Source of the DNA: a virus
DNA length: 35,021 nt
Virus record (IMG/VR): IMGVR_UViG_3300008459_000172
Coordinates: 1 to 35,021 of that record
Reading direction: 5' to 3' (one strand)
Shown: positions 4,469 to 24,598 of the stretch, in pieces
Layout of the letters: each line of letters begins with the position of its first letter
Position numbering within the stretch: the first letter of the stretch is position 1
Position numbers and translations under genes: made by a program
Notes under the pieces: generated by a model
What the model was told of the DNA's origin: nothing
The model's input: the letters and a program-made list of their open reading frames with translations, nothing else
Databases searched by the model: none

Positions 4469-4495
4469 ATATAAATATCTTCTAACAATTTATAT
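4469..4495 (-). promoter_or_regulatory. Inverted repeat with TATTTATA before the 703-residue structural gene
   Basis: Coding strand ATATAAAT, 11-nt loop, ATTTATAT: a perfect 8-bp inverted repeat. It spans the stop codon of the fusion gene and ends 3 nt before the ATG at 4465. The downstream arm contains an exact TATTTATA at 4470-4477, and the upstream arm reads TATAAATT, close to the T4 late-promoter core. No T-run follows it, so it is unlikely to be a terminator. A late promoter or protein-binding site is the most likely reading. Confidence 0.5.
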
Positions 4496-7400
4496 AGCTC
4501 AAATCATTTTTACGATCTATTGTAATGATATTATCAACCATATCCCTAACAACATCTATATGAGATATTACAAGATTAAATCTAAAAATATCCTTCATAT
4601 GAGTAAATAGTGTATGCATAGAGTTTAAGTTGCTACTATCTAAAACACCCAATCCTTCATCTATTGCAATAAAGTCAGGTTTTGGTAGATTTGTAATCTT
4701 TATAAGTGCTATTCTAATAGCTAAAGAAGATATAAAACGCTCCATTCCTGAGCTCAATTCTAGTGGCCACTTACTGTCGTCGTAGCATATAAACGCGTTT
4801 ATGTTTTTACCATCTGTTTCTAAATCCACTGTGAAATCAATAACCTGATTTAGTATGTTGTTAACATAAGATTGTATGTATGGAACAGCCTTACTTATTA
4901 GTACATAAGGAATGCCATCCTTGCAAACAGCCTTACAGTAAAGGTCATAAGCTACCTGCTTGTCAACCAATTCTTGCATATGTTCGATTGATTTGTTGCA
5001 TTCAGATATTGTCTGCTCAGCTACTTTAATTTTTGCATGAAAATCCTTAACAACGTTATTTAGTTTTGATAATTCAATCTTTTTTAAAGTAACCTTTCCT
5101 TGAACATCCTTTATACTACTCTGTATCACTTTATTGTTTTCTAATATTGTAACATTATCATTATAGGTTTTAATATCACCATTAATTTTATCTATTTTAT
5201 GTTGCTCGATATCAATATCCTTTTCAAGTTTTTCATACTGGTTCTCCAGTCTTTCAACTAAATTCTTAGCTTCACCATACTCCTTAATTAGAGATTGAAT
5301 AGTCTCCGCTTCTGTTTGAATAAACTTGTTATTATTGATAAAATCACCAGCTTCTTTTAGCTTTTGTAGAAAATCATGTACAGTCTGTCTGTCACTCTCC
5401 AATTGTGTTTTTGTTTCTATAGCATCTTGTACAAACACGTTAGAGGTGCAATACGTACAATTTGGATCGTATTCATGCTGTTTTAGTTTTTCTAACTTAG
5501 ATAGCTTGTTTGATATTGTTAATTTCAAATTAGCTAATGTACCATCCAATTCAACCTTTTCTTGTAACTTCTTTTGATAATCTTGATACAAGCTGACATC
5601 AAAGGTAGTTTTGTGGTTTTGTAAGTTGGCGTTTATTTCATCACGAATTGCTGTTTGTTCCTGCAATTTTACACTTGTTTGTGTTAAATTAGTTTGTAAG
5701 GCAACTAAGTTTGTTTTTGATTTTTCTAAATTGGATTCCAATATTTTGATATCCAATCCCTCTGCTGTGCAAGGCTGTAGTTGTTTGTTTAATTCTAATA
5801 GTTCGTCGGTCAAACTTTGCAATTCCTGTTCAGCAACAGTTACATCGCTCAAAGCTCTTGTTTGCTTTGTATTATTAATTTCTAATGATCTCTCTGCATC
5901 ACCAAGCTTTGTTTCAAAGTCTTGCTTCTGATACTCTTCTAACACAATTGTTGCTGTTCTATTCTCTTTATTTGCCAATTCATACAGCGTATCAAAGATT
6001 TTTAAATCTAAAAAGTTTGCAAGTAAATCCTTTCTCTCACCTTGAGTTTTGTCTATAAAATTGGAATTGTTACCTTGTAAAGATAAAGCTGTTAATATAA
6101 AGTCATCAAAAGATCCGACGTATGTTTGTATAATCTTATCTGTGTCTCTACGCTGCTCTCCATTTAACATAACCTTCTCACCTTCTGATGTTATATACCA
6201 GAAATCTATATCAACTCTTAACTTACCCTTCAACGGACCACTTTTATATTTATAAGCCTTTTTCTCAATAAAATAATCCAATCCACCCAACTCAAAGTTG
6301 AATTTACAGTAGAAGTCATCCTTCTTTCTATTCAATACTTGCTCGGCCTTACTTGCTCTAAAAGAATGATCAAACAAACAAAAGCATAGTGCATCTAACA
6401 CTGCCGACTTGCCTGCGTGATTTGGCGCAAATAAACCACACGTACCTTCAAAAGTTTGAAAGTTTACAATATTATCTTCACCATAACTAAACATGTTGCT
6501 GAACTCAAACTTCTTAGGTTTCCATACTATGTTTCTAACTACCTCCGTCTGTTGAACAGTTTTATTTAGGTTTGTGTTTATGTTAAGTACTTCCGTTAAA
6601 ACATCTTCTGCAATGCCAGTTTGTTGTAGGTAATCCTTAATGAGTTGGTTTTGGTATTGTACATTTCTAATATCATTTTGACTCAAAGACTCACCAAACA
6701 AATCATTTCCATCATCAGCAGAAACTTTATCCAATCTTTGCACCAATACGTCATTAACCTTGTAGTCTTTACGTAAAGTTGCTAAGATTCTTTTGACGTC
6801 TGCTGGATTGGTTTGTTTAGTTCTCAATCTTACATTTGTCTTGGAATTGATTGGTAGGTTACTTGGAAGCATACCGCTAACAACATCAATAGTATAGTAT
6901 CCATAATCATTGCGAATGTCGTGAAAATCATACTTTATGTCACCTTTTTCTCGCAAGTCAACTAAACCATATCCATGTCCTTCAAACGACTCTCCAAAAT
7001 TTTGTTGCACTAGCGATCCTGGATAGAACACAATCGGATCCTTTTTACATAGAATTTGTCTCTTGTGTATATCTCCCAACAACACTAAATCAAAACCTGC
7101 GAAAACATCCCAGTCTAGACCGTGAGACAATGTTAAGCCGCTATCTACTTGACTATTAGCAATAGTACCATGATACATAGCTATGGTGTGTTTATACTGC
7201 TTTCCTTCTGGAAGTTTATCAAAAGTAATGTATTCACTCTTATCTTCCAATAAAGACATTACACTAATAGCAACATCGCCTATTTCGTATAGGCCTGAGT
7301 TGCGTAAATAGTATAAATTGTTGTGACCAATAGCTTCCACTACTGGAGTAAGTGCATCTAGGCGATTGTTATTATTTAGATTGGTGTCATGGTTACCACA

Positions 7401-7667
7401 GATAACAATAGTTGGAACTCGATTAGCTAACTCAATAAATAAGCAAGAAACCATATTGATTAGCTCAGGACTCATGTCAGTCTTAGCATGAACAATGTCA
7501 CCACCAATTGTAACAATACTATTTTCTGGAAGTTGATCTACAGCTTCAAATAGCTTTTTAAAAACTTCTTTGAATTCCTTATGTCGTTTCCAGTTTCTTA
7601 TATGTACATCAGCAATATGCAATATATAATCAACTTTTGATATTTTACTTTTAATCTTATTTATCAT
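4482..7667 (-). CDS. Mre11/SbcD-Rad50/SbcC fusion: recombination nuclease and ATPase in one chain (T4 gp47-gp46 equivalents)
   Basis: One uninterrupted 1061-residue frame. Residues 10-260 are a calcineurin-like Mre11 nuclease with all metal-binding motifs: DVH (D20, H22), GGD (D57), GNHD (92-94), YHG (H166) and GDIH (D199, H201), then PGS at 216-218. Residues 385-1061 are a Rad50-type ABC ATPase: Walker A APNHAGKSA (414-422), two long coiled coils flanking a zinc-hook CxxC (C737, C740), signature LSSGMERF (971-978), Walker B FIAIDE (999-1004), D-loop GVLD (1007-1010) and H-loop SH (1035-1036). Known role of the family: ATP-dependent end resection for recombination and recombination-dependent replication; in T4 the two halves are separate proteins, gp47 and gp46. 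The first Walker A glycine is Ala here. It follows the primase gene by 32 nt, behind a TAAAAATTAAATAA element. Confidence 0.95.
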   Translation of the reverse strand: MINKIKSKISKVDYILHIADVHIRNWKRHKEFKEVFKKLFEAVDQLPENSIVTIGGDIVHAKTDMSPELINMVSCLFIELANRVPTIVICGNHDTNLNNNNRLDALTPVVEAIGHNNLYYLRNSGLYEIGDVAISVMSLLEDKSEYITFDKLPEGKQYKHTIAMYHGTIANSQVDSGLTLSHGLDWDVFAGFDLVLLGDIHKRQILCKKDPIVFYPGSLVQQNFGESFEGHGYGLVDLREKGDIKYDFHDIRNDYGYYTIDVVSGMLPSNLPINSKTNVRLRTKQTNPADVKRILATLRKDYKVNDVLVQRLDKVSADDGNDLFGESLSQNDIRNVQYQNQLIKDYLQQTGIAEDVLTEVLNINTNLNKTVQQTEVVRNIVWKPKKFEFSNMFSYGEDNIVNFQTFEGTCGLFAPNHAGKSAVLDALCFCLFDHSFRASKAEQVLNRKKDDFYCKFNFELGGLDYFIEKKAYKYKSGPLKGKLRVDIDFWYITSEGEKVMLNGEQRRDTDKIIQTYVGSFDDFILTALSLQGNNSNFIDKTQGERKDLLANFLDLKIFDTLYELANKENRTATIVLEEYQKQDFETKLGDAERSLEINNTKQTRALSDVTVAEQELQSLTDELLELNKQLQPCTAEGLDIKILESNLEKSKTNLVALQTNLTQTSVKLQEQTAIRDEINANLQNHKTTFDVSLYQDYQKKLQEKVELDGTLANLKLTISNKLSKLEKLKQHEYDPNCTYCTSNVFVQDAIETKTQLESDRQTVHDFLQKLKEAGDFINNNKFIQTEAETIQSLIKEYGEAKNLVERLENQYEKLEKDIDIEQHKIDKINGDIKTYNDNVTILENNKVIQSSIKDVQGKVTLKKIELSKLNNVVKDFHAKIKVAEQTISECNKSIEHMQELVDKQVAYDLYCKAVCKDGIPYVLISKAVPYIQSYVNNILNQVIDFTVDLETDGKNINAFICYDDSKWPLELSSGMERFISSLAIRIALIKITNLPKPDFIAIDEGLGVLDSSNLNSMHTLFTHMKDIFRFNLVISHIDVVRDMVDNIITIDRKNDLSYINC

Positions 7668-7699: not shown

Positions 7700-8659
7700 T
7701 TATTTCAGAAAGTCAACAGCTAACATATTGACTGTTCCAAAGTTCATTTTTAAACTCAGTAATTCGAAGAAATCTATTTTTTTAGCTTTTGTTAAGCAAT
7801 CTACCATATCAACGTATCCAATCTCATTTGGATCCTTGCCAGGAATCGTTACTAAATAAACATTAAGTCCTTGGTTTAGAAAATATTCTATGTGATTGAT
7901 TGAAGCCTTCATAGCATCGGCATCCAGTGCAAGGTATATGTCCTTAGCGTACGAAACTAATTTAGCTTTTAAACTTGGCGATATTATTTTACCAAACAAT
8001 GGTACTGCATTTCTTTTGGTTGATATGGCATCAAAAGCACCTTCAACTACTACAACCGGCTCATTCCAGTTTATTTGATTTTCAAAACCTATAATATCCT
8101 TAGACACTGGTGGATTTTTGTGTTTGATAGTTGCATTATCATAATAACTTCTACCAACATAGTAATTGATTACACCATGATCATTAAAGCTCGGAATAAT
8201 AACCATCCCAGCATAAGGACCATTCTCACAGTAACCAATTTGATATCTCAATATATCGATAGGTGTAAGTCTTCTTATATTAAGAATATAATGTAACGCG
8301 TTTTTGTAATCGGGAGTGTTTTGATTGACCCATAATGGCTTATAATCTTCAGGTAAACCTATCAACTCTCTACCATAATCCTGTCTACCATTATTAGTAT
8401 TATCACCATAGATCTCCTTAATCTTCTGGCAGGTTTGTGTGTTAGCATTACTTTTTCTTAGTAATGACGTTATAGTTTGACCTTTACTATCACAAACCCA
8501 ACAATGCCATTTTTGTGTAGTTAAGTTAACTTGTAACTTAGGCTTGTAGTGGTTGCAAAATGGACAATGGAAACTTATTTCACCAGCCTTTTTGTGCTGT
8601 AGGCTAGAGCCTAAATGCTCGTCCAGGATATGTTTAACTTGTAATAAATTTATAGTCAT
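7700..8659 (-). CDS. DnaG-type DNA primase (zinc ribbon plus TOPRIM)
   Basis: A 319-residue primase. The N-terminal zinc ribbon has two CxxC pairs (CPFC at 32-35, CWVC at 53-56), as in DnaG and phage primases, where it helps template recognition. A TOPRIM domain follows: VVVVEGAFDAIS at 202-213 with the catalytic Glu at 206, and LALDADA at 243-249 supplying the acidic DxD pair (D246, D248). GKDPNE at 274-279 is the usual C-terminal TOPRIM feature. The size is close to T4 gp61 and there is no helicase domain, so it should make RNA primers with a separately encoded helicase, not seen in this window. It lies between endonuclease I and the recombination fusion gene. The 43-nt upstream gap holds a possible sigma70-like promoter. 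Confidence 0.93.
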   Translation of the reverse strand: MTINLLQVKHILDEHLGSSLQHKKAGEISFHCPFCNHYKPKLQVNLTTQKWHCWVCDSKGQTITSLLRKSNANTQTCQKIKEIYGDNTNNGRQDYGRELIGLPEDYKPLWVNQNTPDYKNALHYILNIRRLTPIDILRYQIGYCENGPYAGMVIIPSFNDHGVINYYVGRSYYDNATIKHKNPPVSKDIIGFENQINWNEPVVVVEGAFDAISTKRNAVPLFGKIISPSLKAKLVSYAKDIYLALDADAMKASINHIEYFLNQGLNVYLVTIPGKDPNEIGYVDMVDCLTKAKKIDFFELLSLKMNFGTVNMLAVDFLK

Positions 8660-8702: not shown

Positions 8703-9101
8703 TTATTTAAGCCACTCCATAGGAATAACCTTATCTGCATAAATAAATCCATACTTGTTACACCAATCTGCGTAAGTAGTTTTAGATCCTTTACGAATTT
8801 TGTTTTTAGAATTTTGAAACACAAATCGAATATCTAATTCGGGATGCTGTTCTTTTATTAATATATGCTTTTTTCTGTCTTCTACAACAAATCTACCCTT
8901 TGTTTCAACAAAAATTCCATTAGGTAATCTAAAATCTGGAGTGTATTCGTGATGAGTAACTGGTTTAATGTACCGTACTTTATGCTTTTCGTACTCACCA
9001 TCTACATTGACTTGTTTTAATTGTGCATCAACAATTTCCTCAAGACCACTTCTATAACCTTTTTCCCTTGCTATTTTTAGTGTAGCTCTTCTTTTATTCA
9101 T
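8703..9101 (-). CDS. T7-type endonuclease I (Holliday-junction resolvase)
   Basis: A 132-residue protein matching phage T7 endonuclease I (gp3) in size and active-site layout. RSGLEE at 17-22 gives the N-terminal catalytic Glu (E21), YTPDF at 53-57 gives D56, and VETKG at 65-69 gives the E66-x-K68 pair. T7 uses E20, D55, E65 and K67, the same spacing shifted by one residue. The family cleaves four-way junctions and branched DNA, resolving replication and recombination intermediates before packaging. It starts 15 nt after a tail gene and precedes the primase, opening a three-gene DNA-metabolism cassette within tail genes. All expected catalytic residues are intact. Confidence 0.92.
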   Translation of the reverse strand: MNKRRATLKIAREKGYRSGLEEIVDAQLKQVNVDGEYEKHKVRYIKPVTHHEYTPDFRLPNGIFVETKGRFVVEDRKKHILIKEQHPELDIRFVFQNSKNKIRKGSKTTYADWCNKYGFIYADKVIPMEWLK

Positions 9102-9116
9102 AACTGTATATCGTTT

Positions 9117-10784
9117 TTATCTATCGTATCTTACTATAATGGTTGTATCCATATTATCTGGCAACTGTACCGGTTGACTGAGCTTACCAATCATCAAAAG
9201 TCTACCATAATCGTCATACAAACCCACAGAAGTAACAAACGGTTTAAAATTTGAACCTGATAGTATTGGTTTACACACATATTCACCTCTAATTGGATCA
9301 TTCTCAATCAACGTTGGATTTGTGCTCATAGAAAACTCACCAGGATTAACTGTGCAGGACACCTCAGTCTCCCACATTGTATGAGTACCTCTCGATTCAA
9401 CTGATAATATATCACTAAACCTTGATGGAATTGATGTGAGTGTAAACATTCCTTGATTATAAAAAACATTACCTATATTAGTGTTACCAACTCCTAACGT
9501 GTGATGTAGTATGTTAACCTCATTTTGGTTAAGATACTTATTGTATAATTTTATATTGTCAATAGTCCCATTAAAACCTCTATCTAATTTGTAAGAGTTT
9601 CCTATATAGATGTTTGACAGATTTCGTGAATCAGTGTCACAATTTATCATCACACCACTATCAGTGGAGTTTCCAATAGCACTATTTACGTGCAAGTACA
9701 TAGTAGAACCAGATCTTGTTGCAGCTACATGATATAGTGTATCAAGACTCATAGAAATGCTACTTGTTAACATGAAATTACCATCACCACCAGCATCTCT
9801 CTCAAACATTAATTTTTTACTACCCGACAAGTAGGTCAATCTGTAAGGTGCATTATTTGGTGTAGTATAGGTTATTGTGTTTCCATTCTCATCTAATCTT
9901 ATATCATCTACAACACTTTGTTTTGATATGATTATAGAGCCTGAAGGATGTGTTGGTGCTTGTGTTGGTCTTACCATTAGACTAATAGCATAGTCTTGGT
10001 TTTCAAAATTATACTTCTCTCTATACTCAGTAACAACGTTTGGTTTAATTTGAATACTTGAGCTTAAAGAAGCTGTGAAATGCATAGTTGCTCCTAACAA
10101 ATCAACATCCGTAGGATAAGGCATCATACTGCCAGTGACACTAACTACACTAATATTAGTGTATATAGACTCCATTACCCACATACCTCTATTAAAACTA
10201 CTAGTATGGTTGATAAGTCCAATGCCTGTGTATTTATACAACTCATCAAAAGGCCACTCACCTACTGGCATTCTAGTTACAGACGACGAATAGTTTGTAT
10301 AAGCTCCTCCAACAAACTGTCCATACGGTGAATAGTATTCACCATCAGCAATTTTTAAATTACCAAAACCATCATCCGAAATATTCCACTCACCCGTAAC
10401 TTCAGTAACCGATCCACTAACATAATAGGTACCGCTTATTGGAGCAATTGACCATTTAGCTTTTATATTAACAGAGCTAGGCATCACAGCCTCACCAAAC
10501 TTAGATTGAGGCAAACTTATAATATAAGCTTGATCTTCCAGAAATCTAATCTGTGTATTTATATTCCCAGAACCAAAAGAAGCTTTGTTATTACTTAAGA
10601 AATTTCTATAAAAAAGATGGTCTATTGAAGTGTGTACAACTCTCTCAAACTTCCCATTACTGGTTAGTGATTCAAGATTATCAGAGTAAGAACTACCTTG
10701 ATGAAAATAATCTCTTAGTGGATTATTTAACAAATAGTCAGTTCTAGGATTGTAGTTGGCTTTATATATTGTGTATATTGACAT
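9117..10784 (-). CDS. Tail fibre-like protein with LamG-type domain and shared C-terminal module
   Basis: A 555-residue structural protein. Residues about 258-430 form a LamG/concanavalin-like jelly roll: AISLMVRP near the start, LYHVAATRSGSTMYLHVNS in the middle and the typical closing FNGTIDNIKLYNKYLNQNEV. Such domains often bind glycans, so a receptor-binding role is plausible. The last 100 residues (about 455-555) are a module also found at the end of the protein encoded at 12158-13186: a Cys-containing strand, a FSMSTNPT segment, then SVGLYDDYGRLLMIGKLSQP. The N-terminal 60 residues contain an HTSIDHLFYR segment of the kind seen in T4-like structural proteins. The ATG overlaps the upstream stop codon (TAATG), indicating coupled translation. 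It has no enzymatic motif. Confidence 0.82.
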   Translation of the reverse strand: MSIYTIYKANYNPRTDYLLNNPLRDYFHQGSSYSDNLESLTSNGKFERVVHTSIDHLFYRNFLSNNKASFGSGNINTQIRFLEDQAYIISLPQSKFGEAVMPSSVNIKAKWSIAPISGTYYVSGSVTEVTGEWNISDDGFGNLKIADGEYYSPYGQFVGGAYTNYSSSVTRMPVGEWPFDELYKYTGIGLINHTSSFNRGMWVMESIYTNISVVSVTGSMMPYPTDVDLLGATMHFTASLSSSIQIKPNVVTEYREKYNFENQDYAISLMVRPTQAPTHPSGSIIISKQSVVDDIRLDENGNTITYTTPNNAPYRLTYLSGSKKLMFERDAGGDGNFMLTSSISMSLDTLYHVAATRSGSTMYLHVNSAIGNSTDSGVMINCDTDSRNLSNIYIGNSYKLDRGFNGTIDNIKLYNKYLNQNEVNILHHTLGVGNTNIGNVFYNQGMFTLTSIPSRFSDILSVESRGTHTMWETEVSCTVNPGEFSMSTNPTLIENDPIRGEYVCKPILSGSNFKPFVTSVGLYDDYGRLLMIGKLSQPVQLPDNMDTTIIVRYDR

Positions 10785-14059: not shown

Positions 14060-17000
14060 TTATACAATCTCAAAAGTTCCTAATGGACTAGGAGATGTTT
14101 GTAGCCCTCTACCACCACCAGTAACTATTTTTACAACAGGACCACCATCTATAGTGTCAGGACTATTTACATTCCAATCTGGTGATGTGAGTTTACAACC
14201 ATCATATCTTGCATTCCTCATACCATAGCTATCAACTAAGTGAAAATCCTGAGTCTCAGCTCTGTAGTTTAAACATTCTAATTGAACATTTAAGATTGAC
14301 ATAGCACCGCCATCTAAAGTGAAAGAACCAATACAATCAAAATAAAGATATGGACCAGTTGCTTTTATGATTGCTGTTGCTGTAGTATCGTTGCTTACTG
14401 TAGCTATCACATTAGCGTCCGAGCCACCAGCACGTAAGGTTACAGAAGGTATAGTGTCTCCTACATTCACAACAGAACAAGAAACTCTATAAGTTACTTT
14501 ATACAATAAGTTGTATGTAGATAAATCTTCTTCTTTATAAAAGAAGGCTGGCACTTTAGCAGACGCCGTCACAGCACCTTGAGCACCAACAACCTCAAAC
14601 CTTAAACCAAAACTACTCGATAAAGACCAATAAGCTGTACTATTGTATGTATCTACAACATTTCCAGCTACCGTCGTTGTTCCAAACACTAAACCATAGT
14701 GTAGTGTCCAATCGCTATCTTGAAGCTTAGAAGCACTATCGAAAGTGACTAAAGAGCCAGTCTGAAATGCTTTTTTACCATATATGTTAACGTCTGTAAC
14801 GTCTGATGTTAAATTTGAAATACCACTTCTATGACTTGTCATAATAACAGGACATAGTGCTTCGTGATAGTCATAACGGCTACTAGTAATCCAGTAAGGC
14901 TCGGATCTTGTTGGACCACTACCACTTGTAGCATAGGTCATAAAAACATATTGCGAACCTTCATAACGAACATTACGACCATAAGCAGTTTCACCAACCT
15001 CGATAGTATCAGTGTACTCATCAACACTACCAACTTGATTATACTCATTTGCAGAACCAGACAATCTTAAAATAACACCATCAATACCACCAACAACATT
15101 TGAGACAGCAAAATCATCTCCATCAACACTAATAATATCTTCTGGTATTCTTATACCTTGTCGAACACTCTCAAATTCTCTATCTGGATATTGAATAATA
15201 TCGTTATACTCTCTTAACTGTTGCTCATCACCACTAATCCGCAAATAAACACCATCATTACTACTTATAACAGCTTCTGGTACATAAACTGGACTATCTC
15301 TAAAAGGCTCTCCATCACCATCAGACACAAATCCGTCAACAAATATTACACTATCTGGTATATCGATAGAACTCGAATAGTGCAACTCTTCAATTGATGG
15401 TGTTTTTGTAGGTACCTTACTTCTATGAAGTAGGTGTGGCTCTATTACTAAACCAACTTGAGCATTTGCTCGATATGGTATAAACTTCTTTATTATTTTA
15501 AATAACGCAGCATCGTAGTGTCTTAATAATCTAATGTAATTTTGAACAGCTCCCTTACCACTATACTTTTTAAAATATTCGAAGTTTAACGATTGTAGAT
15601 CTGGATAATAGTCTAATCCTAAGTGTGATGGATCACCAACATAATCATCCAAACTCAAACCACCAAACTGCTCAGCAATATCCTGATTAGTTTCATTTGT
15701 AGGTGAAAAATAAACTCCAAGTCTAGAACTATCAGGTGGATTATTGTCTGTTAAAGCTTTTTCAACTTTTATATTTGGATAAAGTTGATTTACGCCTGCT
15801 GTTATAGTCTCATCTATTCTAATCTTATTGCTAATACTGCGATTAGCACCCATATCAGGCCACTCCATAGAATGAATCTCAACAATAGGTTCATAAAGTG
15901 GAGATCTTAGTCTGTGAAAGGTAGCTGTTTTTGCTGTGATACTGTCACCAAATGTATTGCTGGATTGATCTGGATGTTGCGATCCAAAACTAGAAGTTAA
16001 GCCAAAGTCAATTTTTCTGTTATCAGAACCTAAACAAAGTCTAAAGCTAAGATCATAAAAACTTGAAGTACTTCCTGTGAATCCTTGTATTGGATTACCT
16101 TGAAAATTAGTTGGAGCTAATGCTTGATTATCTAATATAGAATTTTCTAAAGAGGTTTTCCAATATCTAAACTCCTGTATACTACCAGTAAACAGTGTCA
16201 TGGAACTAGAATCATTTACTGTATACGACCCAGATCCAGGAATCCATAAAGTTCCAGATGTTATGAAACTACTGTTGTAAGAGCTGCTTGTTAAACCGTT
16301 TATAGATAAGCTAGCTGTTTGAGTTGATACTACCTTTTCGTAATTGGTTTTTTTAACAATTAATGTATACGTTTGATTAATATTGATAGAATCATCTTCT
16401 ATGTCTCTTTGTAGAGTTATACTATGAAAGGTTCCATCATATATTGAGGAACTAACACTAGCTGTTGCCCAACCAGCACTACCACTTAAATAAAATCCTA
16501 CATACTGATAACCGTTATTATCTGTGTGAGTTTTGATCTTCCACTTATTTGGAACTTCTATTATACTTTGTTCCTTTGTTTGGTTTTTTACCATTTTAAC
16601 TCTTAGTTGAGTTGCCATAGGTACTAAACTATTTTCCAAAGGTTTCCATGGAATACTTATTAATTCTGTTGGATCTCCAGTACTATAAGATGAGCTGCCA
16701 TACACAGCAGAACCATATAAGGAAGTTACTCCAACACCACCATAACCAACTTGTAAAGCATAGTTAAACCTATCATGCACAAAGTCGGTCTTTGTATCAA
16801 AATCAGGCTCAACTCCACCATATTCTCTAATTCTTAAGATTGTTCTCGGAATACCAAAACAATTTATTAAAGCTCTTAACCCTCTATCAGTACCTTTTGT
16901 TTTTAGCAAGTAGGGTAGATTGTTAATAATACGTTTCCAAATTTCTCTTGTTTTATCCTCTGTACTGGTTCCAAAAGTTGAGACCATAGAGCCAGATACA

Positions 17001-18586
17001 TCAGTACCTAAAACATAACTCCACAAGTCATCTAGAGTATTGCCGTTCTCAAAATCAACACCTAAGTTTTTAGCTATGTGATAAACCAACTCCTTACTGA
17101 AGCCATCCAATAAAGATTGCTCTCTATTGTATGTGTAAGACATTTGCTTTATATAAGTGTGTATTAGATCGAAATAATGACCTATCATATTCACAAATAA
17201 AACATAGCTATCATTGGTAGGATCTTCTAAAACATGTGCAGGTACTAATCTGTATAAAGCATTATTATTATTCTCATCAAATAGGCTCGCTGAAGTTATG
17301 ATTCCATCAAACCATTCCTCAACTTGAGAAGATGTATATGAAAATCTTGTGTATGGTTTTACACTATTGGATTTTGGCCAAGTAGTTGGATAAAATTCAC
17401 CATAACTGTTAGTTACATAACTACTAGACTCATAGAACAAATACTTTTCATATCCGTCAAAGGTACCTACTAACGCTGCTCGTTTTGTTTGAGCATCAAT
17501 TACGTTGGCTTGAAAGTAAGTACTAGCTGTTACACTACTACTTGGCAAGCCATTTAAGTCAATGGTTAAAGCTGCGATTCTAGAATCATACTGTTCTAGT
17601 AAAGATACTTTATACTTGAAGTTTTGTAGACGTTCAACAGCAGAACCAAAGTGTATAAAATTATTAAAATCTTTGTAATCTACATTTAAGGGTATCCCTT
17701 CAATAAACGAGGAACTAAATAATCTATTTACTAAATCTTGTGAAGTTGTAGTATTTGTTGACAATAAGTCATCCCAATCCTTATAGGCAGTAGAAACACT
17801 TGTCTGTTCCTTCACCAACACATCCCAGTTTGGCCCAGCAATTTGAGTTGTAGTTTTAACTGGTTTAGGTGGTATAATTAATATGTCGTCCTCATGATCT
17901 TCATTTAGTTGTTGACTCAACCACACCAAGTCACCAATGACAACACTGTCAGGTATTGGTGTGTTTAACTTAAAAATTATACTGTATGGTGAGGATGGAA
18001 AAGTAAATCTATCTTGTACGTAATCAAATACTTGAACTGAAGTGTTTGCATCTTTGTGAATAAACAAATTTGGAAGCACTTGTGGCTTTGGTAACTGAAA
18101 GAATCTTGTTTCAAAAGCACTCAGAAAACCAGTATTGCTGTAAGTATTAGAAGTTGTAGGAACGACCCTTATCTCCAACCTATCAGCACTAATTTCTTGT
18201 ACTTGCAATTTGTGTGCATCACCGGATCCAAGATAGTTTCTATAGAATTTATAAACTGTTTTATATCTACCCGATTGATACCCAAGACTTAGTAGGTCAT
18301 TTTCAACATCAACAGTTACCGTTGTTGAAGTTTTATCATAACCCGTAACCCTATAATTTGTTTCAAGGTACTGGTCAACAGCATTATATACATCCAATTG
18401 AACTACATCATTAGGATATACATAAATAAGATCAGGCTCTAATCCAAAAGGTCTTACAAAGTTGGATGTGGGTAGCGGTACATTCTGATTTGATAATCTT
18501 ATAGCTGATGGTAATGTATTAGCAGAACCATCCTGAGATGCTCCTAAATTAATAGATTTGAAATCTATGACTCTTCTGTTAGACAC
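14060..18586 (-). CDS. 1508-residue baseplate/tail protein with gpI-like segment, LamG-type domain and tandem repeats
   Basis: The largest gene in the window. Residues about 450-590 resemble P2 tail protein I (a homologue of T4 gp7 in the baseplate wedge): a helical stretch with FSKELVYHIAKNLGVDF, then NLPYLLKTKGTDRGLRALIN and GIPRTILRIREYGG, the KGT...REYGG pattern being the diagnostic part. Residues about 655-820 look like a LamG/ConA domain ending in MTLFTGSIQEFRYWKTSLEN. Residues about 1070-1190 contain tandem repeats around IPE-x-IIS and DGVxLRLSG. The remainder is beta-rich. The start is GTG; there is no nearby alternative, and TATTTATA lies 11 nt upstream. Coming shortly after gp25- and gp6-like genes, it is plausibly the wedge partner of those proteins fused to surface-binding domains. 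The gpI assignment is an inference from motif pattern. Confidence 0.85.
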   Translation of the reverse strand: MSNRRVIDFKSINLGASQDGSANTLPSAIRLSNQNVPLPTSNFVRPFGLEPDLIYVYPNDVVQLDVYNAVDQYLETNYRVTGYDKTSTTVTVDVENDLLSLGYQSGRYKTVYKFYRNYLGSGDAHKLQVQEISADRLEIRVVPTTSNTYSNTGFLSAFETRFFQLPKPQVLPNLFIHKDANTSVQVFDYVQDRFTFPSSPYSIIFKLNTPIPDSVVIGDLVWLSQQLNEDHEDDILIIPPKPVKTTTQIAGPNWDVLVKEQTSVSTAYKDWDDLLSTNTTTSQDLVNRLFSSSFIEGIPLNVDYKDFNNFIHFGSAVERLQNFKYKVSLLEQYDSRIAALTIDLNGLPSSSVTASTYFQANVIDAQTKRAALVGTFDGYEKYLFYESSSYVTNSYGEFYPTTWPKSNSVKPYTRFSYTSSQVEEWFDGIITSASLFDENNNNALYRLVPAHVLEDPTNDSYVLFVNMIGHYFDLIHTYIKQMSYTYNREQSLLDGFSKELVYHIAKNLGVDFENGNTLDDLWSYVLGTDVSGSMVSTFGTSTEDKTREIWKRIINNLPYLLKTKGTDRGLRALINCFGIPRTILRIREYGGVEPDFDTKTDFVHDRFNYALQVGYGGVGVTSLYGSAVYGSSSYSTGDPTELISIPWKPLENSLVPMATQLRVKMVKNQTKEQSIIEVPNKWKIKTHTDNNGYQYVGFYLSGSAGWATASVSSSIYDGTFHSITLQRDIEDDSININQTYTLIVKKTNYEKVVSTQTASLSINGLTSSSYNSSFITSGTLWIPGSGSYTVNDSSSMTLFTGSIQEFRYWKTSLENSILDNQALAPTNFQGNPIQGFTGSTSSFYDLSFRLCLGSDNRKIDFGLTSSFGSQHPDQSSNTFGDSITAKTATFHRLRSPLYEPIVEIHSMEWPDMGANRSISNKIRIDETITAGVNQLYPNIKVEKALTDNNPPDSSRLGVYFSPTNETNQDIAEQFGGLSLDDYVGDPSHLGLDYYPDLQSLNFEYFKKYSGKGAVQNYIRLLRHYDAALFKIIKKFIPYRANAQVGLVIEPHLLHRSKVPTKTPSIEELHYSSSIDIPDSVIFVDGFVSDGDGEPFRDSPVYVPEAVISSNDGVYLRISGDEQQLREYNDIIQYPDREFESVRQGIRIPEDIISVDGDDFAVSNVVGGIDGVILRLSGSANEYNQVGSVDEYTDTIEVGETAYGRNVRYEGSQYVFMTYATSGSGPTRSEPYWITSSRYDYHEALCPVIMTSHRSGISNLTSDVTDVNIYGKKAFQTGSLVTFDSASKLQDSDWTLHYGLVFGTTTVAGNVVDTYNSTAYWSLSSSFGLRFEVVGAQGAVTASAKVPAFFYKEEDLSTYNLLYKVTYRVSCSVVNVGDTIPSVTLRAGGSDANVIATVSNDTTATAIIKATGPYLYFDCIGSFTLDGGAMSILNVQLECLNYRAETQDFHLVDSYGMRNARYDGCKLTSPDWNVNSPDTIDGGPVVKIVTGGGRGLQTSPSPLGTFEIV

Positions 18587-18605
18587 TTATATTTTAATAT
18601 AAATA
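18587..18605 (-). promoter_or_regulatory. TATTTATATTAAAA element and small inverted repeat before the 1508-residue gene
   Basis: TATTTATATTAAAA (18592-18605) is identical over 14 nt to the sequence before the gene starting at 28470. The TATTTATA core ends 11 nt before the GTG at 18586. It overlaps a 7-bp inverted repeat (TTATATT-AA-AATATAA) running nearly up to the start codon, which might affect initiation. Confidence 0.45.
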
Positions 18606-18621
18606 TATTGATAAAATAAAG

Positions 18622-21183
18622 TTAGGGAGTTGTATCATCCTGATCTTCAGCATCAACACTACTATCTGGTAAACTTGTATCGTCACCAAAACCTAAATCA
18701 AACGCACTACCAGATACACCTACTGGTATTAATGTTGATAGATCGTCTAAGTTTATACCATTAATCAAATCGAAGGTACCTTGTAATTCAATATAAGGAT
18801 CGCTTGGTTGTGTTGGTATTGGTACAGTTTGTGGTACTTCTAGAGGATAGTTAAAGTCTGGTTTAATTGCCGAATTAAAGGCGTTTGGATCTGTATATTT
18901 TGCTTTCTGTATTCCTACTACAGTTTGGTTAGCTGGTGGTAGTTGATACGAGGTGTATGTTTCGTTAATCTCAAAATCATTAGGTGATAATAAAAACTTT
19001 ACACTTGTAATTCCACAACGTGGATTTCCATACTCATGATTTCTTAAACCAATACCAGCACCATCACCAAGATCATTTACATACAACTCCTGATCAACCC
19101 AACCCTTCGTTCTCGGCGAAGTATCTTTCATAGCTTGTGTTAGATTCTTAAATCTAACTGTAACACGAACTGATCTTGTTTTAGACGGCACTACAATATT
19201 TTTTCCAACTCCAAACATAGCCGCAGCACCAAAATCCTGTACAGCTCTCCACTTTTTAGCATCATTAAAACCATCAAACCCTGATCCATTTGGATATGAC
19301 TGATTACCGTACTTGTTAAAATTATACTTGTTAAGCAAAAATTTAGCATTAACATCAGTAAGCTGGTTGCCTATTCCGCTAACCTGCGAACCGTTTATAG
19401 TAGGTCTTATGTTATATGGTGCCAAATCAGTACTAAATAAAGGTCGTATTGCATCTGTTGTTGTATAGGTCTGTCCAAATACCGTTATGGGATTATTGCT
19501 TGGTATTATGCATTCATAGAGTCCATATAAAGTTAATGGAAAGTATACCTTTTCCTTTATAGCCCAAACATCACGATTACTAGGACCATCTAATACCTCA
19601 GTCTTCAATAGAGCATCAAACTCATCCAGGTATTCTAGAACAACTGTAGTCGTATCCTCTACTAGAGGTGTAATTTCTATAGGAGTCCCTTGTAGTGGTC
19701 TTATTGGTGGTATAATGCCTTGCAATGGTGTTTGTCCATTCCAAATAAGACTACCATTATAAGCTCGTGCGAGTGAACTAACACCAACCAACTCATCTGG
19801 AGGCATGTTTCCAAAGTTAGAATCAACAAAGAGATATCTACTCAAAAGAAAATTTAAGTTAGTAAATCCAGCAACTGTTGGAGACGCACTTAATCTGTGT
19901 TGATTATAATAGGCCTCTAAATCTTTTAAATAATAGTTATAGCTTTTAACACCATCCGCTGTTGATACCTTTACATTGTAACCAGTAATACCAGCTCCTA
20001 CATATGCAAAAAATTGTGAAGACACATATTTTACACCATAAACCTTACCATCAATCATATCTGAAACCTCAGACAAATCAACAACCTGAGTCATTTGAAC
20101 CTCAGGATCATTTCCTAATTTTTCAAAACGAATTCTATCTCTTGTAAAATATTGTGATTGATAATTATCATACTCATTAAGTAATGTTGTGGAATTGATA
20201 CTTACATTTTTGTTGTATGCATCCATAAAACGTATTCCTGGATAAAAGGCAGCATACGGCTTTGGTTGATTGTACACAAAGTCCTCGTTTGGAATTATTT
20301 GTGGTAAGTTCCATTCGATGGATCCCTTCTCCTCTGCGTTTAATATAGGAGAACCATTTATCACCACATCTACAGTAGATATTAAGTTTGTAGTTGCAAA
20401 ACTAGAATCCCTCTCCAACCTCTTTCTATAACCATTATAAAACAATATACGATCATCCCCGGTTGTAAAATAAAAATCAGTAGGTGCTGAATCAATTAAC
20501 TCAGTTCCTTTAGAACCTTCGTACAACTTATAACCATTTATAGCAGTCCAACCAGCTAATCTGAAACTTCCAAAGTCTTTCACATTAGCCGCATCAGATA
20601 TAAATGTAGTTACTTTTATGCTTGTGTCTGCTTGCCAACCATTTAAACCACCATCACCATCACCATTTAAAATTAAATTTTTAAGTAGTTTAGGATGCTT
20701 AATCGGATCTACGATCTCAACGTCTATCGGGTCTGAGACAACTGTTCCATATGGATTTGATACCTCACAAACATACCTACCAGTAAGATCTGCTGAACTT
20801 GATGCTCTTGATACAAGAAATGTGTTTGTTCCTATACCACCACCTACATTATTTAGTTCATATATTGGTGATTCATCTCGAGTCCATTTATAGGATATAT
20901 TTGTTGTGTCATTAATGTTTAAAGTATTAGACAAATCAACAGACTCTAAACCTAACAAAAATTCAGTACCCTCTAACATGAGCACCCTGTTAGATTCAAT
21001 CTTAATGTATTGAAAAATTGGAGTGCCAATTTGTATATCCTCTAACCAAGTAAACTGCTTAAAATTGTTTACAGGTTGCGATACTATTAGCGGCAATTGT
21101 ACTGTGTCAGCAGTCAATTGAAATTCACCAGCTCGTATAGCACCTTCTTCAGATAACCTCGAAAGTTGTATAGTACGTCTCAT
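18622..21183 (-). CDS. Ig-domain tail/baseplate protein, paralogue of the gene at 21188-24598
   Basis: An 853-residue structural protein. Residues about 66-158 are an Ig-like (I-set) domain: W100 in a YKWTRD strand and the closing LTGRYVCEVSNPYGTVVSD with Y137 and C139. A segment NLILNGDGDGGLNGW (169-183) follows, like the start of CBM4/9-type jelly rolls. About residues 342-410 (a YFTRDRIRFEKLG start, then VYGVKYVSSQFFAYVG) align with the same region of the upstream neighbour, so the two arose by duplication. It ends in a very acidic tail (DSSVDAEDQDDTTP). The ATG follows the upstream stop by 4 nt, with TATTTATA overlapping that stop. A surface-exposed wedge or whisker-like role is plausible; Ig domains in phage structural proteins often aid weak binding to cell surfaces. 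Confidence 0.85.
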   Translation of the reverse strand: MRRTIQLSRLSEEGAIRAGEFQLTADTVQLPLIVSQPVNNFKQFTWLEDIQIGTPIFQYIKIESNRVLMLEGTEFLLGLESVDLSNTLNINDTTNISYKWTRDESPIYELNNVGGGIGTNTFLVSRASSSADLTGRYVCEVSNPYGTVVSDPIDVEIVDPIKHPKLLKNLILNGDGDGGLNGWQADTSIKVTTFISDAANVKDFGSFRLAGWTAINGYKLYEGSKGTELIDSAPTDFYFTTGDDRILFYNGYRKRLERDSSFATTNLISTVDVVINGSPILNAEEKGSIEWNLPQIIPNEDFVYNQPKPYAAFYPGIRFMDAYNKNVSINSTTLLNEYDNYQSQYFTRDRIRFEKLGNDPEVQMTQVVDLSEVSDMIDGKVYGVKYVSSQFFAYVGAGITGYNVKVSTADGVKSYNYYLKDLEAYYNQHRLSASPTVAGFTNLNFLLSRYLFVDSNFGNMPPDELVGVSSLARAYNGSLIWNGQTPLQGIIPPIRPLQGTPIEITPLVEDTTTVVLEYLDEFDALLKTEVLDGPSNRDVWAIKEKVYFPLTLYGLYECIIPSNNPITVFGQTYTTTDAIRPLFSTDLAPYNIRPTINGSQVSGIGNQLTDVNAKFLLNKYNFNKYGNQSYPNGSGFDGFNDAKKWRAVQDFGAAAMFGVGKNIVVPSKTRSVRVTVRFKNLTQAMKDTSPRTKGWVDQELYVNDLGDGAGIGLRNHEYGNPRCGITSVKFLLSPNDFEINETYTSYQLPPANQTVVGIQKAKYTDPNAFNSAIKPDFNYPLEVPQTVPIPTQPSDPYIELQGTFDLINGINLDDLSTLIPVGVSGSAFDLGFGDDTSLPDSSVDAEDQDDTTP

Positions 21184-21187
21184 TCAA

Positions 21188-24100
21188 TTATAAATATGTT
21201 CCAGCTACTTTATCTTGTAGTGGTGCATAAGCGATAATATAATCGTTGTTTGCACTAGTAGTACCATAACTAGGACTACCTACGCCACTAGTACCATCTC
21301 TCGAATCTACTGGTTTTATACCCACTAAAGACGGCCCAATAATACCATCTCTCACTCTTAGGTTTAATAGATAAGGAGATCTTAATGTTTGTCTAGCTAG
21401 ATTTGTTGGTTGTGAGTTACTGATTGAACTTAAACCAAATGTATATTCATTAGCGAATGTAGTATCAGCTAAATCTATATTAAGTGTACTACTATAGTAT
21501 TGATTAATTTGCTGATAAACGTCAGGTTCAGTTAATGTATTAGGTTGTATACTGTTTAATTGAAAGTAAAATGGTACACTATTATAAGCATAATCGTTTA
21601 ATGAAGCTGAGTAGCTTCTCAACTCATCTAATGCAAAAGGTGTTGTTGTAGTTGCAAAGTTATCTATATCATCTTGAACAGGCTGCAAAATTTCATTGAC
21701 CTTTTTAATATAAAAGTAATTGTTTTCAACCCGAACAAGACTGTAAGCACCTATATTAGTGCGCAATGCTCTAATACATTGTATGGGATGGTCACTTATA
21801 CGCACAATAGACTCTGTTGTTCTTTCAACAAAGGGTATTGGATCTATAAAAGGATCGTGACTTGTTAGTGGAAACTGATTTGACGGTAGAGTTTGCTTCA
21901 TTGTTTTGTATCCCATTCCTCCTCTATTCATCGAAGCTGTTAAAATTGTATCTAAGTTGCATCTTAGTACAAGATCGTTAGACATACTATGCCTTAAATC
22001 AAAACTACCAGATAAAACTGTGATATCCGTAGTGTTTGGATCATCGGGTGGAAACAAGTCTTTATTTCGTGATAAAGTTACTTTCGTATTACTCAAATCC
22101 GAAAAGTCAAAACTTAAATAGTAGCCTAAAATAGGATATTGATGTGCTAAGAGCGTACTTGAAGGTATGTAAGTAAACCCAACATAATCGGGTTCATTAG
22201 GTTGATCTATGTTGAGCAGTTGTGTATAATACCTAGGATCAAAAGATTGAGAAGTATCTGGTAAAGCAAATGATATGTGATATCTAGCTTTACCCTCCCA
22301 AATAGATTGATAATCCAGAGTAGCTATCGTTAATCTATCTGTAGTAGACTTATCTGTGACATATAAGTAGTTTTCTAAAGAAGTTGCAGCTTGTTGATAT
22401 TTTTGCTCATAAGCTGGTTTTGGTGTGTTGATACCATCGTTAACATTGTAAGTGGGTATATATCTATATTTTGCAAATCTCTTATAGGTGGCTTCCGACT
22501 TAGTGTTAAAACTAGCATCTTGCGCAGCAAGATCAGAAACACCTTCGGTGTAGATAATGCTACCTAAACTAAATGGAAACAAACCCTCAGTTAAGATAGA
22601 TACTGGTCTTGGTGATTGTGATGGTACAATATCCTCTATAGATAATTCCAACTCATCACCCTCTTCTATCAAACCACTATTACCAATAGCAAAACCCTTA
22701 TCATTCAATCTAAACTTTAACCTCCACCTTCTAGTATTCAATCCAGCAGGATCATAGTCTCTACCAGCATCAAGCACACTTGGTACGAATGATTCTTGTG
22801 TTGAGTTTTGTGTAAGTATATTATTTGTTATTGTATTTGTAAAAGAATTATTTTGTGTAAGTATTGGTAATAGTGTTAGATTCAAAGCTGTAATCATTCC
22901 ACGTGGATCATTAGCCAACGGAAGAAAATCTAAAGGATCAACTCCACCATACCGACTATCCTGTCTCTTTAAAGTTTGATAAACGTTGTTTAAATAGTTT
23001 GCCGATACGTCTGATTCCCATGTATTTTTTTTCCACGGAAACTCCCAACCTAAGATTTCAAAGATTTCATCACTACTTTCATACAACTCTTTTGAAGTAT
23101 CAAACATACGTGAATCATTGCAAACAAAGTTTAAAACAATTCTAACTTTTGTTGTTTTTGGATTCAATCTTTCTAACACTAGTTTGTTAAACTCAACATA
23201 CTGTCCATAGGTGTATCTCTTTGTTGGATCTGGGTATAAATCTTGAGCTGTTAGTAAGGTTACATCTAAAAAGTCTCCTTTTGAAGATGAACCGACTCCA
23301 TATACATCTGTTGGATATATTTTTGTACCATTCTGAACACTACCATACCAGAACCATTTTCTATTCCACGGATCCCTAACAATAAGTCTATCAGCGGAAG
23401 TAGCAACATTACCAAATTGGTCATAATACTTAGTAGATAACCTTATATCATTATCATACTCTTCAATAGACACGTAAATATCTTCTGATGGAAATTGTGG
23501 AGGACCGGAGTTTAATGTGTTTTCTACACCAATTCTTGGTGCTTTTCCAATATAGTAACGTAGATCTGTACGCTTTGTTATTGGTAGTAGGTTTCTAACT
23601 AATTGGAATCTATTAATAGCATTGCCTATGTAGCAACTAAAAACAGCTCTAACTCCTTCTACACCAAAAACACCACCTTTTAGTAGTGGTTGAATATCTG
23701 TTAAGTCAATATCTTGGTAAGCTCTTACTAAAGTTGCACCACCTCTTTTTAGATACTTTAACCTTGCTCTTGTAAAATAAGAACCTTGATTTATGACTAA
23801 ATCCTCAGTCATATTAAACCCTCTCAATACACCACTATCTAACTGGTAAGGTCTTGGATGCAACATATCAGGTGTATACCCAAACAAATCAACTCTATTT
23901 GGTCTTTTAAATTCTTGAGATGGTATCTCACTAAACTTTTTAGTTGTGAAATCATCACTATTAGATTCCCACTCATCTGTACCCTGTTTTCCATATGGAT
24001 TTCTAACAAGATTCTTATAAAAGAACTCATCAAAATCAAGATTTAAAACCTCGAGATTTATGGTTTCACTCGAAGTAGTACCTATATCATTTTGAACTTC

Positions 24101-24598
24101 ACAAACATAAGTCCCAGCATGTTCCGGTTGTATGTTTACAAACTGCAAAGTACTACTGCTTACTATTAACCTAGATTGTAAAGATTCAATATCGTAAGAT
24201 GTGACTAGATTTCCATCTTTACGCCAAACATAGGTTAATCCTTCATTTGGTGGTATCATTGTAGGAATACCGTTCTCAACATTTAAAATACTGGGTTGCT
24301 GAGCTATCAGCTTAAAGGTGAATGTAGCACCTAAGTTTGTTTTCACAGATCCATCAGGAAAGAGATACATAGCGTCTCCTGTAGCATCTGCTGTAGCGTA
24401 TGGTTTTATCGGTGGATCTGAAGCTTCGCTTATTGGTGATATTATTATTGGTGGTTTGTTTATGAAAACTGGCAATAAATCGTAGACAGTTTCATTTTCA
24501 TTGGTGTTAGATAAACTAAAAAAACTAATACTCCCAGAGCTATGAGCCGGAAGATTGTCGTTTAAGTCACCATTTAGCGTTCCATCAGGGTTTCTCAT
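21188..24598 (-). CDS. 1136-residue Ig-domain tail/baseplate protein
   Basis: The protein has an Ig-like I-set domain at about residues 88-187: W125 in TYVWRKDGN and the closing PEHAGTYVCEVQNDIG with C166; the usual first Cys is absent, so there is no disulfide. Next comes NLVRNPYGKQGTDEW (196-210), a CBM4/9-like strand start, and residues 272-335 (SYFTRARLKYLKRG, VFGVEGVRAVFSCYIG) that match the downstream paralogue. The C-terminal 700 residues are not shared at a level I can see, apart from general beta structure. The ATG overlaps the upstream stop as ATGA, coupling it to the DNRLRE-like gene. It lies two genes after gp6, where T4 has wedge genes 7 and 8. Homology to those is not evident; wedge or peripheral baseplate function is inferred. 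Confidence 0.85.
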   Translation of the reverse strand: MRNPDGTLNGDLNDNLPAHSSGSISFFSLSNTNENETVYDLLPVFINKPPIIISPISEASDPPIKPYATADATGDAMYLFPDGSVKTNLGATFTFKLIAQQPSILNVENGIPTMIPPNEGLTYVWRKDGNLVTSYDIESLQSRLIVSSSTLQFVNIQPEHAGTYVCEVQNDIGTTSSETINLEVLNLDFDEFFYKNLVRNPYGKQGTDEWESNSDDFTTKKFSEIPSQEFKRPNRVDLFGYTPDMLHPRPYQLDSGVLRGFNMTEDLVINQGSYFTRARLKYLKRGGATLVRAYQDIDLTDIQPLLKGGVFGVEGVRAVFSCYIGNAINRFQLVRNLLPITKRTDLRYYIGKAPRIGVENTLNSGPPQFPSEDIYVSIEEYDNDIRLSTKYYDQFGNVATSADRLIVRDPWNRKWFWYGSVQNGTKIYPTDVYGVGSSSKGDFLDVTLLTAQDLYPDPTKRYTYGQYVEFNKLVLERLNPKTTKVRIVLNFVCNDSRMFDTSKELYESSDEIFEILGWEFPWKKNTWESDVSANYLNNVYQTLKRQDSRYGGVDPLDFLPLANDPRGMITALNLTLLPILTQNNSFTNTITNNILTQNSTQESFVPSVLDAGRDYDPAGLNTRRWRLKFRLNDKGFAIGNSGLIEEGDELELSIEDIVPSQSPRPVSILTEGLFPFSLGSIIYTEGVSDLAAQDASFNTKSEATYKRFAKYRYIPTYNVNDGINTPKPAYEQKYQQAATSLENYLYVTDKSTTDRLTIATLDYQSIWEGKARYHISFALPDTSQSFDPRYYTQLLNIDQPNEPDYVGFTYIPSSTLLAHQYPILGYYLSFDFSDLSNTKVTLSRNKDLFPPDDPNTTDITVLSGSFDLRHSMSNDLVLRCNLDTILTASMNRGGMGYKTMKQTLPSNQFPLTSHDPFIDPIPFVERTTESIVRISDHPIQCIRALRTNIGAYSLVRVENNYFYIKKVNEILQPVQDDIDNFATTTTPFALDELRSYSASLNDYAYNSVPFYFQLNSIQPNTLTEPDVYQQINQYYSSTLNIDLADTTFANEYTFGLSSISNSQPTNLARQTLRSPYLLNLRVRDGIIGPSLVGIKPVDSRDGTSGVGSPSYGTTSANNDYIIAYAPLQDKVAGTYL
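21189..21196 (-). promoter_or_regulatory. TATTTATA element overlapping a stop codon, before the 853-residue gene
   Basis: Exact coding-strand TATTTATA, 5 nt before the ATG at 21183. It also encodes the last residues of the upstream gene, whose TAA begins inside it. Retention of the 8-mer where it must also be coding suggests selection, but one case is weak evidence. Confidence 0.4.

What the first reader, a model, noticed from the sequence alone, without database searches (positions are those of the whole stretch)
4482..7667. Mre11 nuclease and Rad50 ATPase fused in a single 1061-residue chain
All Mre11 metal motifs and all Rad50 ATPase motifs, including a zinc-hook CxxC at 737-740, sit in one open frame. 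In T4 and in bacteria (gp47/gp46, SbcD/SbcC) they are separate proteins from adjacent genes. A fusion fixes stoichiometry at 1:1 and places the Rad50 head about 125 residues after the nuclease core.
Basis: partly seen in the sequence, partly recalled or inferred. Interest (0 to 1): 0.75.

Follow-up and report, generated by a model that had tools for sequence, protein, structure and literature searches.

The report
Phage Mre11-Rad50 fused repair nuclease
A virus of bacteria encodes, as one protein instead of two, the nuclease-ATPase pair (Mre11 and Rad50) that trims broken DNA ends; the fusion is real and shared by many aquatic phages, but this kind of fusion was already described in 2011.

Summary
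Confirmed: window 4482-7667 (-) is one 1061-codon frame with a complete Mre11 half and a complete Rad50 half. It is not an assembly error. All 80 retrieved relatives are open across the junction, and 66 are full-length in one frame. The isolate Microcystis phage Mel-JY01 carries it (39% identity, full cover) as its only hit to either domain family. One detail is wrong: residues 260-385 are not a linker. They are the Mre11 capping domain, a disordered stretch and the Rad50-binding helix-loop-helix; the true linker is about residues 371-380. One metal ligand departs from the canonical set: motif V is GDIH (Asp199 for the usual His). The kind is known: Yoshida, Claverie & Ogata (2011, PMC3175470) described Mre11/Rad50 fusions (Mimivirus R555 and others), abundant in aquatic viral metagenomes beside phage primases and T7 gp3-like endonucleases; R555 has the same His-to-Asp change. 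The window has these same neighbours. All seven related records over 115 kb that were searched encode a RecA-family recombinase. Most likely function: gp46/47-like end resection and tethering for recombination-dependent replication, by a homodimer equivalent to M2R2. Verdict: new member of a known kind.

The parts
4482..7667 (-). Fused Mre11-Rad50 gene, 1061 aa plus stop
   Evidence: 66 full-length relatives in one frame
6918..7628 (-). Mre11 nuclease domain, residues 14-250 (D20, H22, D57, N92, H93, H166, D199, H201)
6735..6902 (-). Mre11 capping domain, residues 256-311
   Evidence: model secondary structure; S. aureus SbcD nuclease+cap matches model 13-312, Z 25.6
6663..6734 (-). Low-confidence, probably disordered stretch, residues 312-335
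   Evidence: pLDDT near 40 in both models
6558..6662 (-). Rad50-binding helix-loop-helix of Mre11, residues 336-370
   Evidence: two helices in models; profile 155-361 aligns to T. maritima Mre11 165-368
6528..6557 (-). Fusion linker, residues about 371-380
   Evidence: coil in models; Rad50 structures align from 380-382 on
6003..6527 (-). Rad50 ATPase N lobe with Walker A and Q-loop, residues 381-555
5478..6002 (-). Rad50 coiled-coil outgoing arm, residues 556-730
   Evidence: long helices in models
5439..5477 (-). Zinc hook, residues 731-743, with C737 and C740 (bases 5448-5459)
   Evidence: CxxC invariant in 32 close relatives
4836..5438 (-). Rad50 coiled-coil return arm, residues 744-944
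   Evidence: long helices in models
4485..4835 (-). Rad50 ATPase C lobe with signature, Walker B, D-loop and H-loop, residues 945-1061
7700..8659 (-). DnaG-like primase (zinc ribbon and Toprim), directly upstream; neighbour, probably same operon
   Evidence: directly upstream in all 80 relatives
8703..9101 (-). T7 gp3-like endonuclease I; neighbour
   Evidence: kept in 67 of 80 relatives

Best explanation
The gene encodes a complete Mre11-Rad50 nuclease-ATPase as one chain: Mre11 nuclease, cap and Rad50-binding helices, about 10 linker residues, then Rad50 with coiled coil and zinc hook. Shown: the intact fused frame, both sets of motifs, conservation of the fused form in a large clade of aquatic phages, conserved neighbours. 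Inferred: two chains pair into the equivalent of the M2R2 head; the ATP cycle of the Rad50 heads gates the Mre11 active sites at DNA ends, and the zinc hook tethers ends. The enzyme resects double-strand ends of the phage genome and so feeds a phage RecA-family recombinase for recombination-dependent replication, as gp46/gp47 do in T4. The neighbouring primase and T7-like endonuclease I would serve priming and junction resolution.
For: Domain and motif hits; structure matches to SbcC (Z 30.8) and SbcD (Z 25.6); conserved primase and endonuclease I neighbours; RecA-family recombinase in all seven related records over 115 kb that were searched; sole Metallophos and AAA_23 hit in phage Mel-JY01; role of gp46/47 in T4 (PMC3016281, PMC3016280).
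Against: No experiment on any fused member was found. Dimerisation could not be modelled (single-chain prediction only). The three largest-scale roles of Mre11-Rad50 (resection, host DNA breakdown, hairpin cleavage) cannot be told apart by sequence. Motif V departs from the canonical ligands.
Confidence: 0.75

Rival explanations
1. The frame is joined by a sequencing or assembly error, and the two genes are really separate.
For: Metagenomic contig; 3 of 80 relatives do have broken frames, away from the junction.
Against: 80 of 80 related loci are open across the junction; 66 full-length fusions from independent assemblies; the same fusion in the isolate Mel-JY01.
Confidence: 0.005
2. The gene also yields a separate Rad50 by internal initiation, or the chain is cut into two subunits, so the fusion is only genetic.
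For: The window has a GGAGG motif just before the junction.
Against: No in-frame start with a Shine-Dalgarno-like site at the junction in 28 relatives; the GGAGG is not conserved. The first conserved ATG (M392) would remove the first Rad50 strand. Proteolysis not tested.
Confidence: 0.05
3. The main role is host-genome breakdown or cleavage of hairpins and foreign DNA ends rather than recombination-dependent replication.
For: gp46/47 are also annotated as needed for host DNA degradation in T4; SbcCD cleaves hairpins (established knowledge).
Against: Conserved link with primase and endonuclease I, and co-occurring RecA-family recombinase, point to replication and recombination; the roles are not exclusive.
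Confidence: 0.15
4. The Mre11 half has lost nuclease activity through the His-to-Asp change in motif V, and the protein only tethers DNA.
For: Asp replaces the usual first His of motif V in all 22 fused sequences compared.
Against: All other ligands are kept in nearly all members and the Asp is itself invariant, as expected of a working ligand; Asp is a common Mn/Mg ligand (general knowledge).
Confidence: 0.07

Closest known systems
Viral Mre11/Rad50 fusions: Mimivirus R555 and its aquatic metagenome relatives (Yoshida et al. 2011, PMC3175470)
   Same: N-terminal Mre11, C-terminal Rad50, short linker after a kept Rad50-binding helix-loop-helix, Asp at the His206 position, abundance in aquatic viruses, primase and T7 gp3-like endonuclease as neighbours. 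Giant-virus fusions are the top structural matches among viral models.
   Different: R555 is 1351 aa with a longer coiled coil and comes from an amoebal giant virus; the window is a contractile-tailed phage with a 1061-aa protein.
Phage T4 gp47/gp46
   Same: Same two activities and motifs; contractile-tailed phage; RecA-family partner.
   Different: Two genes, separated by 46.1 and 46.2 in T4; GHFH in motif V; only distant in sequence.
E. coli SbcD/SbcC
   Same: Same fold of both parts and same order, D before C.
   Different: Two overlapping genes, GHIH motif V.
SPO1-type phage SbcD/SbcC (Herelleviridae)
   Same: DnaG-like primase gene next to the SbcC-like gene.
   Different: Split genes with several small genes between them; about 22% identity.

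Membership tests
Mre11/SbcD nuclease | Calcineurin-like phosphoesterase with DxH, GD, GNHD, H and GHxH metal motifs | tested here: inconclusive
   All motifs present except that the first His of GHxH is Asp. The fold and sequence matches are to Mre11/SbcD.
Mre11/SbcD nuclease | Capping domain and C-terminal Rad50-binding helix-loop-helix | tested here: met
   Cap 256-311 and helices 336-348/354-370 in the model; profile match to T. maritima Mre11 through residue 368.
Rad50/SbcC ATPase | Bipartite ABC ATPase head with Walker A, Q-loop, signature, Walker B, D-loop, H-loop | tested here: met
   All motifs present; Z up to 30.8 to SbcC and Rad50 heads.
Rad50/SbcC ATPase | Antiparallel coiled coil with CxxC zinc hook | tested here: met
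   Helical arms 556-730 and 744-944; C737 and C740 invariant in 32 relatives. Zinc binding itself not tested.
Viral Mre11/Rad50 fusion (R555-type) | Mre11-like domain followed by Rad50-like domain in one chain | tested here: met
Viral Mre11/Rad50 fusion (R555-type) | Asp at the position of P. furiosus His206, as reported for R555 | tested here: met
   D199
Viral Mre11/Rad50 fusion (R555-type) | Sequence clade with Mimivirus R555 | not tested
   R555 is not in the searched collections; only structural similarity to giant-virus fusions was seen.
M2R2 complex | Dimer of Mre11 and of Rad50 | not testable with these tools
   Structure prediction here takes one chain only.
M2R2 complex | ATP-dependent nuclease activity | not testable with these tools
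   Needs a bench assay.

The most novel reading that the evidence does not exclude
The fused, Asp-type (GDxH) Mre11-Rad50 is a single old viral enzyme class, formed once, that spread over aquatic phages, huge phages and amoebal giant viruses, with a metal site and cis-coupled mechanism unlike the studied split complexes.
Probability: 0.25. Interest if true: 0.5.

Novelty: new member of a known kind. Interest (0 to 1): 0.25.

Why it matters
It gives complete genes, gene context and an isolated phage (Mel-JY01) for a fusion type that was known in 2011 from giant viruses and short aquatic metagenome scaffolds. A natural single-chain Mre11-Rad50 of about 120 kDa would be a convenient object for structural and enzymatic work, and the invariant Asp in motif V raises a testable question about metal use.

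Tried and rejected
Artefactual join: rejected. Internal start for a separate Rad50: rejected on 28 relatives. Cellular copies: 11 loci in bacterial and archaeal assemblies; most are short MAG contigs, several with the same phage primase next to the gene, so probably phage contigs binned with a cell, and the one in a WOR-3 'chromosome' (L093) ends in a run of N, an apparent scaffold join. Plasmids: four weak hits, none covering 80% of the query. A close split relative: not found; the nearest split pairs are about 22-29% identical. Vibrio phage D254 looked like a possible split cousin (overlapping genes, GDLH, Rad50 start like the fused junction), but falls with the split group on a long branch. 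Rfam on the insert in LR756508: no hit. pT24 as query found only its own genome in IMG/VR. No later paper on these fusions was found in the held library; one search was malformed. Bacillus phage 0305phi8-36, cited in 2011 as a fusion, was not found under the accession tried.

Full report
Observation. The window is a whole IMG/VR record of 35,021 bases. The frame at 4482-7667 on the minus strand is open for 1061 codons from ATG. Pfam and PHROGs put a Metallophos domain at its N terminus and a Rad50/SbcC-like ATPase over the rest. The sequence resembles solved Mre11 in residues 16-251 and solved Rad50 on both lobes.

Not an artefact. A scan of IMG/VR gave 184 relatives, of which 80 were fetched. 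Sixty-six of the 80 are full-length in a single frame, 11 are cut by a contig end, and 3 have a frame broken elsewhere: L035 near residue 206, L036 near 124, L055 between 531 and 612. All 80 are open across residues 330-395. The isolate Microcystis phage Mel-JY01 has the fusion at 39% identity over the whole length, annotated only as 'AAA domain containing protein'. It is that genome's only hit to either domain family. The 735-kb huge phage LR756501 (1202 aa) and Tenacibaculum phage pT24 (1310 aa) have divergent fusions.

Anatomy. Two AlphaFold2 models (mean pLDDT 76.7 and 82.9, pTM 0.44 and 0.49, so domains are more reliable than their arrangement) give: nuclease 14-250, capping domain 256-311, disordered 312-335, helix-loop-helix 336-370, coil 371-380, Rad50 N lobe from 381, coiled-coil arms 556-730 and 744-944, hook 731-743, C lobe 945-1061. 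The Rad50 part matches E. coli SbcC with Z 30.8 (rmsd 3.2, 349 residues) and the Mre11 part matches S. aureus SbcD nuclease plus cap with Z 25.6 (rmsd 3.5, 279 residues). The family profile aligns 155-361 to T. maritima Mre11 residues 165-368, near its C-terminal Rad50-binding end. That agrees with the 9-12 residues estimated in 2011 from the 28 A gap in the T. maritima complex. No internal start with a ribosome-binding site lies at the junction in 28 relatives examined.

Active sites. All Rad50 motifs are present. Among the Mre11 ligands, motif V reads GDIH: Asp199 stands where P. furiosus Mre11 has His206. All 22 fused sequences compared have Asp there. Nine of ten split ones have His; the exception is Vibrio phage D254. 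The 2011 paper reports the same change in Mimivirus R555.

Context. A DnaG-like primase lies directly upstream in all 80 relatives and a T7 gp3-like endonuclease I before it in 67. Baseplate wedge genes further along mark the window as a contractile-tailed phage. All seven related records over 115 kb that were searched encode a RecA-family recombinase; three shorter ones, probably fragments, show none.

Evolution. In trees of the concatenated heads, of Mre11 alone and of the Rad50 heads alone, the fused phage proteins lie together against ten split pairs, support 100/99 each time. This fits one fusion event among those sampled. Sampling was seeded with fused queries and long branches are present, so it does not exclude the several events proposed in 2011. 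The closest predicted viral structures are mostly giant-virus proteins of like length (Tupanvirus, Harvfovirus, Catovirus), with the Tenacibaculum phages also among the top hits.

Mechanism. Inferred: a homodimer equivalent to M2R2 that resects and tethers DNA ends for recombination-dependent replication, by analogy with T4 gp46/47 (PMC3016281, PMC3016280) and supported by the co-occurring RecA, primase and junction nuclease. Not shown: dimerisation, zinc binding, nuclease activity, phage phenotype.

Novelty. Yoshida, Claverie & Ogata (2011) described Mre11/Rad50 fusions in Mimivirus, bacteria, eukaryotes and a Bacillus phage, and aquatic viral metagenome homologues with the same kind of neighbours. 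The finding is a well-supported new member of that kind.

Noticed in passing
L082 (LR756508.1) 6674-7591: In this 484-kb phage the fusion gene is interrupted just after the conserved Mre11 motif GDIHKRQ by about 900 bases with a 305-aa ORF that has zinc-finger-like Cys motifs and a weak TnsA-like endonuclease domain match, perhaps a homing element; no Rfam intron match.
   Followed up: partly
L083, L097-L102: The huge-phage branch of the fusion lacks the Q-loop glutamine and has an altered D-loop region, so its ATPase may work differently.
   Followed up: no
L087, L089, L116: His22 of the first Mre11 metal motif is Gln in these three fusions.
   Followed up: no
L091, L092: The zinc hook aligns to a longer-spaced cysteine pair (CGEEYSSC, CGNEHPTC) instead of CxxC.
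   Followed up: no
L119 3157-5896: Vibrio phage D254 has split but overlapping SbcD and SbcC genes, with GDLH in motif V and a SbcC start (KQFEFSNVFAYGEGN) like the fused junction; a possible picture of the state before fusion.
   Followed up: partly
L093 (CP070664.1): A WOR-3 'chromosome' carries a phage-type fusion gene that runs into a 300-base run of N, which looks like a scaffold join of phage and host sequence.
   Followed up: partly
window 31426-32859 (-): This ORF has a VanY D-alanyl-D-alanine carboxypeptidase domain and a weak match to a tape measure profile, probably a tail-borne wall enzyme.
   Followed up: no
window 9117-10784 and 14060-24598 (-): A LamG-domain protein (9117-10784) and three very large ORFs (1508, 853 and 1136 aa) without PHROG match, probably tail or fibre proteins.
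   Followed up: no
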